From Pseudooceanicola nanhaiensis DSM 18065 (GTDB taxonomy: Bacteria; Pseudomonadota; Alphaproteobacteria; Rhodobacterales; Rhodobacteraceae), in assembly GCF_000688295.1 (NCBI RefSeq), contig NZ_JHZF01000011.1, positions 1,272,288 through 1,336,287 on the forward strand: 64,000 nt of DNA, given 5' to 3'. The notes beneath the pieces are model-generated. The model did no database searches. It was given only the letters and a program-made list of their open reading frames with translations, and was not told the DNA's origin. The position numbers were made by a program, and so were the translations under genes. Every line of letters begins with the position of its first letter. The first letter of the stretch is position 1. Shown one piece after another: positions 4,001 to 13,791 of this stretch.

Positions 4001-4075
4001 TGGTTGCCGGGGACGGGATCGAACCGCCGACCTCGTGGTTATGAGCCACGCGAGCTACCGCTGCTCCACCCGGAC
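4001..4075 (-). tRNA. Phage tRNA with CAU anticodon (Met-like, or Ile2)
   Basis: A cloverleaf can be folded on the minus strand. The D stem is GAGC/GCTC, the anticodon stem CGTGG/CCACG encloses the loop CTCATAA (anticodon CAT), and the T arm has GGCGG, the loop TTCGATC and CCGTC. CCA is encoded at 4001-4003. The anticodon stem lacks the three consecutive G-C pairs of initiators, so an elongator Met or lysidine-modified Ile tRNA is more likely. The acceptor stem pairs at positions 3-7, but positions 1-72 (G/A) and 2-71 (T/C) do not, which is unusual. It lies between the packaging genes and the terminator of the early operon. Confidence 0.85.
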
Positions 4076-4145
4076 ACAGCCAGCCGACCGGCGATCGAGC
4101 GGCCCAATGTGGCACGTCGGACCTCTCCCCGGCAGGCGGACATGA

Positions 4146-4224: not shown

Positions 4225-5094
4225 TCAACCCACATTTTGCGGGCGCGCGAGATCGAACCCCCGCATACGGTCCAACGCCGAGCACAGAGCGTGGCGAAGA
4301 GCCGACCTGGCCTTGTGGTCGGACGCCCAGCCATGAGCCTCTAGCACCTCAGTCAGCGACATTTCCCCGACACACACGCTGTCGACCAGCGTCTGCGCCA
4401 GGATCGCCTTCCGCTGCCGCTCAATCAGAGCCCTTTTGGCGGCGGCCTCCGTTGAGCTCTTCGGCTTGCCGGGTCGCAGACGCCGGACCTCCTTCGCCAA
4501 CCCGTTGCCGATCCGACGCTCGAACACCCTGAGGCGCTGGAAGTCCCGAAGGATCGCTACCTCACGGTCACCGCCACCGGAGGCCGCGCTGCGCAACGCC
4601 TCGAGAGAGGCGCATTTCACGCCCGAGGCGGCACAGCGCTCCACCAAGGCTGCATACTCCCGGCCGATCACGACCTGGCCGACGGTGAACGGCGGCACGA
4701 ACGGTGGCGCCCGGAACTCCTTGTCGCGCAGCCCCTTCTCCCATTCCCTTCTAGCCTTCGCCACGACAGCGGCGTGGCGTCTCTGGGCTTGCTCGGTCAT
4801 CACGTCGAAGGCATCCGCCATCTGCATTGCCCGACGGCCGGCATATCCGTCAGGGCGCGAGCGCGGCCCGGAGGCCGTCATGGTCACTGCGCGCGGCGTG
4901 AAGACCTTCGTGCCACCACGAGCGGGAGCCGCGACAATGTCGGAGCCGCACTCGAATGGGACGGCGGCGCCCGACATGACGCTGGCATAGGCCGCGCGCG
5001 CATTCGCCTTGCGGGACGCAGCGGCATCGCCAGGCCACGGGCAGTCGAGCCGCGCGCGACCAGCCGGATCAACCCAGATCACGTCGCCCCTCAC
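4225..5094 (-). CDS. Phage protein of unknown function, last gene of early block
   Basis: This 289-residue protein is not recognised. The N-terminal 90 residues are Ala/Gly-rich, the centre (about 100-130) is strongly charged and probably helical (MTEQAQRRHAAVVAKARREW), and the C-terminal part is basic (RRLRPGKPKSST) and ends with a region that could form an HTH-like fold (SLTEVLEAHGWASDHKARSALRHAL). A nucleic-acid role is possible but unproven. Its ATG overlaps the stop of the upstream gene by four bases (ATGA at 5091-5094), pointing to translational coupling in the early operon. The gene is followed by a hairpin terminator. Confidence 0.7.
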   Translation of the reverse strand: MRGDVIWVDPAGRARLDCPWPGDAAASRKANARAAYASVMSGAAVPFECGSDIVAAPARGGTKVFTPRAVTMTASGPRSRPDGYAGRRAMQMADAFDVMTEQAQRRHAAVVAKARREWEKGLRDKEFRAPPFVPPFTVGQVVIGREYAALVERCAASGVKCASLEALRSAASGGGDREVAILRDFQRLRVFERRIGNGLAKEVRRLRPGKPKSSTEAAAKRALIERQRKAILAQTLVDSVCVGEMSLTEVLEAHGWASDHKARSALRHALCSALDRMRGFDLARPQNVG

Positions 5095-5696
5095 GCTGCC
5101 TGCCCTTCGGCCCGCGCGGCGGCACCATCACGCACCAGGCGCAGCGCCCGCTCTTCGATCGACTTCCAGTACTCGAGCTGTTCGAGGTCGGGCTGCAGCG
5201 GCGCGACGCCCCGGTTAAGCTTGTCCTCGGTCCGAGCCCGCTCCGACGCGATCGAGGCCGCCCGGTCCGCGACCAGCTTGCGCTCGTGTGCGCTCAGCGG
5301 CGGGCGCTTCTTGCGCTCCCACCACAGGAACTCGGCGATGAGGCGATTTTCGGCGAGCGCCGCTTCGCCCGCTCGAGAGCGGAACCAGCCCGCCACGCCG
5401 GGGGTCTCCTCGAGCGGTCGCGGCTCATAGGCCTCGGCGGTCGAGACGATCGAGGTGTGCGTCGGCCAGAACGTCCGCTCGGAGCCCTCGCCGTGGGTGG
5501 TCACCCACTCGCGCAGCGCATCGAGCGTCCGATCGCTCAGGTACGCCAGCTCGTCGCAGAGCCGGTCGAGGTGCTTGCGCTGGTCCTCGTCCGAGGTGCC
5601 CTTCCGGAACCGCATGCCCCGTTCCTGCGCCGGGGTGATCAGCAGGCGCCGCACCCGGTCTCGCTTGGTCTCGATGGTGGTCTGTTCTTCGGTCAT
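5091..5696 (-). CDS. Phage protein of unknown function, follows the replication-initiator-like gene
   Basis: The protein has 201 residues if it starts at the ATG at 5696, which has GGGGAT six bases upstream; TTG or ATG starts up to 5717 are also in frame. It is predicted helical and highly charged, with no recognised motif; the segment RMRFRKGTSDEDQRKHLDR and the later ERKLVADRAASIASERART are notable. In lambda-like genomes the gene after the initiator encodes a helicase loader, so that is one hypothesis, based only on position. Start and stop overlap the neighbours closely, supporting one early transcript. Confidence 0.7.
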   Translation of the reverse strand: MTEEQTTIETKRDRVRRLLITPAQERGMRFRKGTSDEDQRKHLDRLCDELAYLSDRTLDALREWVTTHGEGSERTFWPTHTSIVSTAEAYEPRPLEETPGVAGWFRSRAGEAALAENRLIAEFLWWERKKRPPLSAHERKLVADRAASIASERARTEDKLNRGVAPLQPDLEQLEYWKSIEERALRLVRDGAAARAEGQAA

Positions 5697-5717
5697 AGCC
5701 ATCCCCATTCTCAGCAA

Positions 5718-6362
5718 TCAGGCCGCATCCCCGATGCCCACGGCTTCGGCCTCTTCTCGGGTGATCAATCCCTCAAGGATCATGCAGGCGGCGACGGTTG
5801 AGCTAATGGCGTTGGCCGGTATGAACCGCCCACCCCTGATCTCGCCGGCCCAGTACCGGGCTGCGACACGGACCTTTTCGTCGAAACAGGCCGCTGCCCG
5901 GGAGCTCGGAAGGTTATTTACTGGTTCCTTACAGGTTACCTCTCCAGTGGGCTGGAGACGGGACGTGGTCGAATTTGGAGACGGGACGCCATCAAAATTG
6001 GAGTCGGCCCCGTCTCCATTTTTTGGAGTCGGCTTCTTGGGCCCCCCGTCTCCAGTTTTTGGAGCCGGTTTCTTTTCCTGGACCGCGTCGCAACCGAGAA
6101 CGTAATGGGTCGGCAACTGCTTGTGCGTCTTGCCGTCCCAGTGGCGCTCACGGCGCAAAAGGCCCTTCGCCTCGAGCCCGCGCAGGGCATTGTTCAGCGT
6201 GCCGTTCGAGACGCCCGTCGCGTCAATCAGGTAGGCCTGTGTCGGGAAGCAGCCTTGCGACGGGTTGTGGCAGTCGCACAGGTGGAAGAGCACCCGGAAC
6301 TCGCTGTTGGTCAGGTCCTCTGCATCCAGTGCAGCTAGCCAGTTCGTGGCCTTGTGGCTCAT
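5718..6362 (-). CDS. Winged-helix replication-initiator-like protein (O-like), with iterons in the gene
   Basis: The 214-residue protein starts with an HTH_36-type winged-helix region: NSEFRVLFHLCDCHNPSQGC, then FPTQAYLIDATGVSNGTLNNA and a wing LEAKGLLRRERHW (about residues 18-75). Such domains are common in phage replication initiators. The centre (about 95-140) is a low-complexity Lys/Pro/Gly/Asp linker encoded by short DNA repeats (see 5953-6068), and the C-terminus is a small helical domain. Coding-sequence iterons followed by an AT-rich stretch resemble lambda O and its origin. The start at 6362 is chosen because the upstream open frame looks non-coding, although its GAAGG is only one base from the ATG. 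Confidence 0.8.
   Translation of the reverse strand: MSHKATNWLAALDAEDLTNSEFRVLFHLCDCHNPSQGCFPTQAYLIDATGVSNGTLNNALRGLEAKGLLRRERHWDGKTHKQLPTHYVLGCDAVQEKKPAPKTGDGGPKKPTPKNGDGADSNFDGVPSPNSTTSRLQPTGEVTCKEPVNNLPSSRAAACFDEKVRVAARYWAGEIRGGRFIPANAISSTVAACMILEGLITREEAEAVGIGDAA
5953..6068 (-). repeat. Intragenic iterons, candidate phage replication origin
   Basis: On the plus strand, copies of TGGAG(A/T/C)CGG begin at 5953, 5976, 5999, 6024 and 6060, and inverted copies CCCCGTCTCCA lie at 6008-6018 and 6044-6054. The first three are exactly 23 bases apart. The copies at 5999-6018 and 6044-6068 form dyads. The adjoining segment at about 5908-5940, downstream in the gene's direction, is clearly more AT-rich than its surroundings. 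The layout of phased binding sites inside an initiator gene next to an AT-rich region matches the lambda origin plan; origin function is an inference. Confidence 0.65.
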
Positions 6363-12378: not shown

Positions 12379-12561
12379 ATGGGCAAAGCGCGCTTCACCA
12401 AGGCAGAGATCACGCGCGCCGTCGAGGCGGCGAAGGCGTGTGGTCTCGTCGTGGCGGGAGTACGTGTCGGCCCCGACGGGTCAATCGAGATCACCTGCCC
12501 GGTGGACAGCAAGTCCGAAACCCAGCAACGTGGAGAGCCTAAGCGTTACAATGCAGGCTGA
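12379..12561 (+). CDS. Small basic protein before the integrase, excisionase candidate
   Basis: The 60-residue product begins MGKARFTKAEITRAVEAAKA and continues with a strand-rich segment (GVRVGPDGSIEITCPV). It overlaps the integrase start by 11 bases. Small basic proteins directly upstream of tyrosine integrases are often directionality factors, so a role in excision is plausible by position; the sequence does not show a clear excisionase wing. Confidence 0.65.
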   Translation: MGKARFTKAEITRAVEAAKACGLVVAGVRVGPDGSIEITCPVDSKSETQQRGEPKRYNAG

Positions 12562-13642
12562 GAGCGTGAAGCACGATTTTCCGGGCTGGTATCAAGAGCG
12601 TTTGCCCTCTGGCAACGTCAGAAACATCGTCCGGAAAGAGGGCGACAAGCGCAAGAAGACGACCATTCCGGTCGGCCCAGAGCACCACAATTTCCTGAAC
12701 CACTACTGGGCCGCGCGCGCCGGGCAGAAGTGGGCCGAGGAGAAGAGCACCGGCGCTGAAAAGAGTCTCGGCTGGCTCCGGCACGAGTATCTCGCCTACC
12801 TCGAGCGCCTGGTCGCGGGCGGCAACGCTTCCCCGCTGACGCTGAAGCAGCGCCGGAGCCTGCTGACCCGTCTTTGTCGGTTCTCCGATGCTGACGGCGA
12901 TGCCTACAGTGACCTGCACCTGGACATGCCCACCGATGCCTTCATTCGGGTCCGAAACGCGATGGCCGCCACTCCGGCCGAGGCCGACAACATGATGAAG
13001 GCCGCCCGTTCAATGTACGCCTTCGCCATCGAACTCGGTTTGCTGGAAGCCAACCCTCTCGCCGGCATCGCCAAGATTCATCGGGGCAAGGGCGGCGCGA
13101 AACCGTGGACGGCGGACGACCTCCGGAAGTATCGCGAGCGCCATCCGCCCGGAACAATGGCGCACCTCTACCTCACTCTGCTGATGTTTACGGGAACGCG
13201 CATCGGCGATGCCATATGGCTTGGCCGCAAGCACGAGGTGGCGGACGCTGGCCAGGTCTGGCTCGAATGGCAACCAGGGAAGAAGGGCTCCAGAAAGGTC
13301 TCCCTGCCTATCCTTCCGCCCCTCCTCCGCGCCACGCGCGGCATGACGGTTCAGGGGGAGGCCTACATCCTCAATGAGCGCGGCCGGCCCTTCAAGAATT
13401 CCGAGACGCTCAGAACACGGGTGCGCCGCTGGTGCGATCAGGCGGGGCTCGAGGAGCGATCCTCGCACGGCGTGCGCAAAGCCATGGCCACCCTGCTCAG
13501 CGAGGCCGGGTGCTCGGACAAGCAGGTTGGGGCGATCCTCAGCCATTCGAAGGCGGCCACAACCGCGATCTACACAGAGAGCGCGCAGCGGCGGATTCTG
13601 AGCGCCGATGCGATGGACGCTCTCAGGGGGCTGGAATGGTAA
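12551..13642 (+). CDS. int: Phage integrase, tyrosine recombinase family
   Basis: The enzyme catalyses site-specific insertion and excision of the phage genome. With the ATG at 12551 it has 363 residues: an N-terminal arm-binding/SAM-like region (about 70-150) and the catalytic domain. Visible active-site residues are the first Arg in MFTGTRIGDAIWL (about 216), H-x-x-R in SSHGVRKAMATLL (about 306-309), the SHSK histidine (about 332) and the nucleophile in ATTAIYTES (about 341). A longer in-frame start at 12440 overlaps the small gene upstream and is not favoured. The gene ends beside tRNA-Leu, its presumed target. Confidence 0.93.
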   Translation: MQAESVKHDFPGWYQERLPSGNVRNIVRKEGDKRKKTTIPVGPEHHNFLNHYWAARAGQKWAEEKSTGAEKSLGWLRHEYLAYLERLVAGGNASPLTLKQRRSLLTRLCRFSDADGDAYSDLHLDMPTDAFIRVRNAMAATPAEADNMMKAARSMYAFAIELGLLEANPLAGIAKIHRGKGGAKPWTADDLRKYRERHPPGTMAHLYLTLLMFTGTRIGDAIWLGRKHEVADAGQVWLEWQPGKKGSRKVSLPILPPLLRATRGMTVQGEAYILNERGRPFKNSETLRTRVRRWCDQAGLEERSSHGVRKAMATLLSEAGCSDKQVGAILSHSKAATTAIYTESAQRRILSADAMDALRGLEW

Positions 13643-13706: not shown

Positions 13707-13791
13707 TGGTACCCGCGGCCGGACTCGAACCGGCACGGCACAAGGCCTAGGGATTTTAAGTCCCCTGTGTCTACCATTCCACCACGCGGGC
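13707..13791 (-). tRNA. tRNA-Leu (UAA), host gene at the prophage boundary
   Basis: The minus strand folds as a class II tRNA. The acceptor is GCCCGCG/CGCGGGT, the anticodon loop CTTAAAA (anticodon TAA), there is a long variable arm, the T loop is TTCGAGT, and CCA is encoded at 13707-13709. Its 3' end faces the integrase gene, the arrangement expected when a phage inserts into the 3' end of a tRNA and restores it. Confidence 0.95.

What the first reader, a model, noticed from the sequence alone, without database searches (positions are those of the whole stretch)
5908..6068. Phased iterons inside a phage initiator gene, a lambda-like origin
Five direct TGGAG(N)CGG units (three exactly 23 bases apart) and two inverted CCCCGTCTCCA units lie in the linker of a winged-helix initiator-like gene, with an AT-rich stretch just downstream. 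They code a low-complexity peptide, so selection seems to act on the DNA.
Basis: partly seen in the sequence, partly recalled or inferred. Interest (0 to 1): 0.78.

Follow-up and report, generated by a model that had tools for sequence, protein, structure and literature searches.

The report
Phage origin inside its initiator gene
A bacterial virus seems to carry its DNA-replication start site inside the gene for the protein that should recognise it, and across about a hundred relatives the protein's reading helix and the copies of the site change together, so a single gene shows both a reader and what it reads.

Summary
Confirmed and extended. The prophage gene at 5718-6362 (minus strand) encodes a winged-helix, O/DnaD-like replication initiator. 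Its linker DNA holds seven exact TGGAGnCGG half-sites in 116 bp (at most 2 in 300 Markov windows), then an AT-richer element. In 101 of 115 non-redundant homologues the linker DNA is more repetitive than synonymous shuffles of the same peptide (p<0.05); the test gives 1 of 115 in the N-terminal and 1 of 79 in the C-terminal part; lambda O behaves alike. The motif differs between lineages, yet its copies in a gene share it across reading frames and strands, so selection acts on DNA. The motif follows the recognition helix: Arg at its first position goes with G (mostly GTGTCC), other residues with C (TCTCC, ACTCC): 43 and 49 loci concordant, 1 contrary, 8 uncalled; a hold-out set, all Arg, gave 26 of 28, 2 unclear. 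Layout is mostly conserved: palindromes, a 23-bp register, then GTAA-type repeats with Val written GTA in 156 of 177 codons against 63 of 1170 elsewhere. Best reading: a lambda-like origin inside its initiator gene. Binding and origin activity were not measured; the adjacent gene is not demonstrably a lambda P.

The parts
5718..6362 (-). Initiator gene, 214 aa: winged helix (about 1-90), low-confidence linker (about 97-155), C-terminal helices (about 156-207)
6168..6206 (-). Codons of the recognition helix, residues 53-65; N53, T55 and N58 align with the residues that co-vary with iteron bases in the family
5938..6068. Iteron array: exact TGGAGnCGG half-sites at 5953, 5976, 5999, 6024, 6060 (+) and 6010, 6046 (-), plus a degenerate last inverted half-site near 5938-5946 (read by eye and the homologues)
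6046..6068 (.). Palindromic iteron: two facing half-sites around a 5-bp A/T-rich centre
6010..6032 (.). Palindromic iteron, same layout
5953..6007 (.). Three half-sites in strict 23-bp register, a spacing found in 81 of 101 homologues
5912..5940 (.). AT-richer element (GTAA-containing repeats on the coding strand), candidate unwinding element
5091..5717 (-). Adjacent downstream gene of about 200 aa, member of the largest downstream family (20 of 112 loci); candidate helicase-loading partner, not shown

Best explanation
The array is the replication origin of a temperate phage, placed in the DNA that encodes the linker of its own initiator. Shown: the repeats are kept as DNA words and not as peptide; they are concentrated in this linker; their sequence co-varies with the recognition helix of the protein encoded by the same gene; their layout (palindromes, sites in 23-bp register, then an AT-richer element with GTAA repeats) is conserved in most homologues. 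Inferred: the winged helix of an initiator dimer binds the palindromes, the bound array opens the adjacent element, and the C-terminal part with a partner loads the host helicase, as lambda O does at ori-lambda.
For: Synonymous-shuffle test: 101 of 115 linkers p<0.05 (80 below 0.01), N-term 1 of 115, C-term 1 of 79; lambda O linker 0.002, N-term 0.99, C-term 0.50. In 78 of the 80 homologues below 0.01 the sites use four or more of six strand/frame classes (its printed 81 includes lambda). Best-word density 19.7/kb in the linker against 0.28-0.39/kb upstream, in the N-term, in the rest of the gene and downstream (the word was chosen in the linker, where shuffles alone give a mean of 3.2 copies). 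Helix Arg with G, others with C: 43 and 49 concordant, 1 contrary (L180), 8 uncalled. Hold-out found by DNA pattern alone: 26 of 28 concordant, 2 unclear, all Arg type. Asn-Arg with three or more GTGTCTCA/GTGTGTCA-type sites: 7 of 7, 0 of 94 others. In the other 43 Arg loci, Thr at the third helix position goes with a final G in 16 of 16, Ser with A in 19 of 21 (1 tie, 1 G). Val as GTA: 156 of 177 in the 20 codons after the last site, 63 of 1170 elsewhere. DNA-only array scan: 70 of the 80 loci read have the pair inside a homologue of this gene. PHROG 270/345/391/678 are replication-initiation families, and lambda O also matches 345, 391 and 678.
Against: No replication start or binding was measured. 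14 of 115 homologues fail the repeat test, among them L054/L057, RcKemmy (L096) and PPF1 (L098). Direct profile comparison with lambda O finds no alignment worth the name (0.5% probability). The adjacent gene matches lambda P neither by profile nor convincingly by PHROG (1 of 17 members, E 0.07), and it is not the neighbour in most homologues. On the tree only two helix/base switches rest on well supported branches, too few for significance. Foldseek hits are generic winged helices, none at E <= 0.001. In a wider PHROG 270 sample only 8 of 29 loci show such repeats.
Confidence: 0.86

Rival explanations
1. The sites are an intragenic operator: the winged-helix protein binds its own gene to control transcription, and replication starts elsewhere.
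For: The best fold matches include MarR-type regulators; binding by the encoded protein would explain the helix/iteron code equally well.
Against: The PHROG families matched are replication initiation. Operators usually sit at promoters (general knowledge), whereas these lie mid-gene next to a conserved AT-richer GTAA-repeat element, as in lambda (passages of PMC7466680).
Confidence: 0.08
2. The repeats reflect a selected repetitive peptide linker.
For: The linker peptide is itself repetitive and rich in Pro, Gly and charged residues.
Against: Synonymous shuffles keep the peptide and lose the repeats in 101 of 115 genes. One DNA word is used in several frames and on both strands, giving different peptides, and its fifth base follows the helix in four of six strand/frame classes; in ('-',1) the sites found are mixed and in ('-',0) few.
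Confidence: 0.02
3. A mobile palindromic element (REP/RPE-like) inserted in the gene.
For: Short palindromes inside a coding gene.
Against: The double half-site occurs once outside this locus in the genome. Of the 80 loci read from a DNA-only scan 70 lie in this gene, 1 looks like the same gene cut by a contig end, and 9 have fewer than four half-sites. The sequence varies with the protein.
Confidence: 0.01
4. A partition or incompatibility site bound by the protein rather than the origin.
For: Iteron-like arrays also serve such roles (general knowledge); two homologues lie on plasmid records.
Against: AT-richer element and initiator family fit an origin better; an integrase gene and a terminase-like gene point to an integrating phage.
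Confidence: 0.03

Closest known systems
Phage lambda ori-lambda / O protein
   Same: Iterons that are imperfect inverted repeats, in the middle of the initiator gene, 20-24 bp apart, followed by an AT-rich tract (passages of PMC7466680); the same synonymous-shuffle signal; shared matches to PHROGs 345, 391 and 678.
   Different: Other iteron sequence; a 23-bp register; GTAA-type repeats instead of lambda's A-rich tract; no direct profile match to O; no demonstrable P-like neighbour.
Phage P1 RepL / oriL
   Same: Origin proposed inside the initiator gene; synonymous changes in an AT-rich region inhibit RepL-mediated amplification (PMC9948254, abstract and outline seen).
   Different: The abstract names an AT-rich region, IHF and DnaA sites, no iterons; relation of the proteins was not tested here.
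Geminivirus Rep and iterons
   Different: Iterons lie upstream of the Rep coding region (same listing); single-stranded DNA viruses of plants; unrelated initiator (recalled).
DnaD-type replication proteins
   Same: N-terminal winged helix (Pfam DnaD_N E 9e-4, below its cut-off; 2v79 among Foldseek hits, E 0.012).
   Different: Weak match; no in-gene iteron comparison was made.

Membership tests
Lambda-type in-gene phage origin | Iterons inside the initiator coding sequence, conserved as DNA | tested here: met
   101 of 115 homologues
Lambda-type in-gene phage origin | Iterons are imperfect inverted repeats spaced about two helical turns | tested here: met
   (facing sites in 68 of 101, 23-bp pairs in 81 of 101); lambda coordinates
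Lambda-type in-gene phage origin | AT-rich tract next to the iterons | tested here: met
Lambda-type in-gene phage origin | Initiator binds the iterons | not testable with these tools
   only helix/iteron co-variation:
Lambda-type in-gene phage origin | Replication starts there | not testable with these tools
   needs an experiment
Lambda-type in-gene phage origin | Adjacent P-like helicase loader | tested here: inconclusive
   no profile match to lambda P; 1 of 17 members matches the P-like PHROG at E 0.07
Lambda O protein family | Sequence homology to O | tested here: inconclusive
   shared PHROGs 345, 391, 678, but 391 is matched by different halves of the two proteins, and hhalign against O gives 0.5% probability
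REP/RPE mobile palindromes | Copies dispersed in the genome | tested here: not met
   one pair outside this locus in 4.66 Mb

The most novel reading that the evidence does not exclude
A self-labelled protein-DNA recognition code: in a large phage initiator family each gene carries a DNA reader and a set of its own cognate sites, and a few helix residues set the bases of the sites together, across reading frames. Initiator/iteron types would then be replication-compatibility groups of prophages, readable from sequence alone.
Probability: 0.7. Interest if true: 0.75.

Novelty: new variant of a known kind. Interest (0 to 1): 0.62.

Why it matters
It marks a testable origin in prophages whose initiators are annotated, in the phage records seen, only as helix-turn-helix proteins or putative regulators. 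It also gives about a hundred natural pairs of DNA-binding helix and target, each pair in one gene, with several apparently linked switches of specificity. How an initiator and its array of sites change together without losing replication is, in my judgement, an open question that these pairs make testable.

Tried and rejected
Peptide-level repeat, mobile palindrome and chance clustering were tested and rejected. Homology to lambda O by direct profile, and of the downstream gene to lambda P, was sought and not found. The wider PHROG 270 family was sampled: 8 of the 29 loci for which a result was printed pass the repeat test after Bonferroni correction; 30 loci had been fetched and L349 gave none, for a reason I did not look into. 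The frame in that test was the longest one over the locus centre, so some may be the wrong gene.

Literature: searches listed no paper on an origin or iterons in this family. Only the top rows of each were seen, most subscription papers are not held, and two papers were opened (PMC7466680 passages; PMC9948254 abstract and outline), so this is weak evidence of absence.

Known weak points: shuffle seeds depended on Python's string hash, so p-values may shift slightly on a rerun, and the floor is 1/151. The site finder is built on CCRnnTCCR and misses the GTGTCTCA type, counted apart. The hold-out genes are relatives of each other, many of them close in helix sequence, and all carry Arg, so they test one side only. 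In one search the offsets 10, 12 and 14 between facing sites are largely one geometry seen through words shifted by 0-2 bases; one search repeats the count in a fixed register.

Full report
What is there. The minus-strand gene 5718-6362 encodes a 214-aa protein whose N-terminal part is a winged helix (Pfam HTH_36 E 1.7e-10, MarR_2 6e-9) and which matches PHROG replication-initiation families (phrog_270 E 1.8e-14, 345 E 2e-11, 391 E 3e-10). AlphaFold2 with a 16-row alignment gives a confident N-terminal domain with a recognition helix at 53-65, a low-confidence linker and C-terminal helices (mean pLDDT 80, pTM 0.46). An integrase gene at 12440-13642 and a terminase-like gene at 1061-2773 (Pfam TerL matches just below their cut-offs) mark a prophage. 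The reported units are there: seven TGGAGnCGG matches in 116 bp out of 17 in the window; simulated windows never hold more than 2 in that length (300 windows). Genome-wide the word is hardly commoner than its reversed control (17 against 15; pairs 6 against 6); it is the clustering that stands out.

Is it DNA or peptide? Homologues came from viral contigs, genomes and six phage or plasmid regions. From 173 open-frame hits 169 genes were kept and 115 are non-redundant. For each, the most repeated 9-mer of the linker (both strands, one mismatch) was compared with 150 shuffles of synonymous codons within the same linker. 101 of 115 exceed the shuffles at p<0.05 and 80 at p<0.01, against 1 of 115 for the N-terminal part and 1 of 79 for a C-terminal part where that was long enough. 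Lambda O, whose four iterons are annotated, gives 0.002 in the linker and 0.99 and 0.50 outside. The 14 that fail are L033, L049, L054, L057, L093, L096, L098, L126, L147, L151, L178, L179, L183 and L185. An earlier run with 60 shuffles had 56 of 61 at p<0.05.

One word, many frames. Within a gene the copies share a word although they lie in different reading frames and on both strands: 78 of the 80 homologues below 0.01 use four or more of the six strand/frame classes. Between lineages the word differs: CCGTCTCCA, CCATCTCCG, CCAACTCCA, CCGTGTCCA/G, GTGTGCAAA, GTGTCTCA, CCGAGTCCA.

The helix reads the word. With a site finder blind to the fifth base, the majority base is G in 38 of 50 loci with Arg at the first recognition-helix position and C in none (7 mixed, 3 with under three sites, 2 other), and C in 41 of 51 loci with another residue and G in none (10 mixed). 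With a two-to-one rule 93 of 101 loci can be called: 49 not-Arg/C, 43 Arg/G, 1 Arg/C (the divergent L180); of the 8 not called, 6 are of the Asn-Arg type below. By strand/frame class the base follows the helix in ('+',0), ('+',1), ('+',2) and ('-',2); in ('-',1) the sites found are mixed and in ('-',0) few. All seven loci with Asn-Arg in the helix carry at least three GTGTCTCA/GTGTGTCA-type sites and none of 94 others does; in the other 43 Arg loci Thr at the third position goes with a final G (16 of 16) and Ser with A (19 of 21).

Phylogeny. On a tree made without the helix columns the helix state changes 7 times and the base 8 times; leaving out the two most divergent rows it is 7, 7 and jointly 7, so on the best tree the switches coincide. 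The tree has 83 columns and only two independent pairs rest on strongly supported branches, so the number of independent switches is uncertain and not significant by that test.

Hold-out. A DNA-only pattern (two half-sites 23 bp apart, neutral to the bases in question) was run on viral contigs. Of the 80 listed loci, some of which the protein searches had already found, 70 have the pair inside a homologue of this gene, 9 others have fewer than four half-sites, and one array lies in what I judge by eye to be the C-terminal remainder of the gene at a contig end (L263). 28 of the genes are new by an 88% similarity rule; all have Arg; 26 show G, 2 are unclear, none shows C. By my reading of the same rows, Thr at the third position has a final G in 20 of 21 and Ser has A in 5 of 5.

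Anatomy. In a fixed register, same-orientation sites 23 bp apart occur in 81 of 101 loci (132 pairs) and facing sites 14-15 bp apart (a 23-24 bp palindrome) in 68 of 101; an inverted site is followed by a direct one after 11 bp 65 times (the locus-specific words give 166 pairs at 23 bp). After the last site comes an element with CCWGTAARGGAA-type repeats: in the following 20 codons Val is GTA in 156 of 177 cases against 63 of 1170 elsewhere in the same 101 genes, and a CYNGTAA word lies within 75 nt in 83 of 101. With the element defined by peptide instead, found in 86 of 115 genes, it is 153 of 166 against 47 of 1028. In the window the element is 41% G+C.

Mechanism. The best reading is a lambda-like origin: initiator dimers on palindromic iterons, opening of the AT-richer element, helicase recruitment through the C-terminal part and a partner. 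[quoted passage not shown] For this family binding, opening and loading are inferred. The gene next downstream belongs to a family found in 20 of 112 loci with a downstream frame; it has no clear PHROG or Pfam match and no profile match to lambda P. Other loci have other downstream genes, so a fixed partner is not shown.

Scope and limits. In a sample of PHROG 270 from 398 genomes of the phylum, 86 of which match, 8 of 29 loci tested show such repeats after correction. Direct profile comparison with lambda O failed. The finding is therefore a variant of a known kind of origin; the initiator/iteron code readable within single genes is the part I did not see in the top listings of the searches made.

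Noticed in passing
window 4001-4076 (-) and 13707-13791 (-): A tRNA-Met gene between the terminase side and the replication gene, and a tRNA-Leu gene next to the integrase gene, a possible attachment site.
   Followed up: no
L069, about 1108-2346: Two tandem copies of the initiator start in one genome (G149), one with a stop inside.
   Followed up: no
L054-L063: A group of close homologues with other linkers in which no iterons were detected (L054 and L057 tested): either lost or of another kind.
   Followed up: partly
L010 3675-4340; L067 downstream; L069 and L156 upstream: Iteron-like words or their peptide also outside the linker in single loci.
   Followed up: no
L036, L098 and 8 other loci: Ten loci share another downstream family, annotated as NusG in Rhizobium phage PPF1.
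   Followed up: no
L096, L097, L100: Initiators of isolated Rhodobacter and Labrenzia phages are annotated only as helix-turn-helix proteins.
   Followed up: partly
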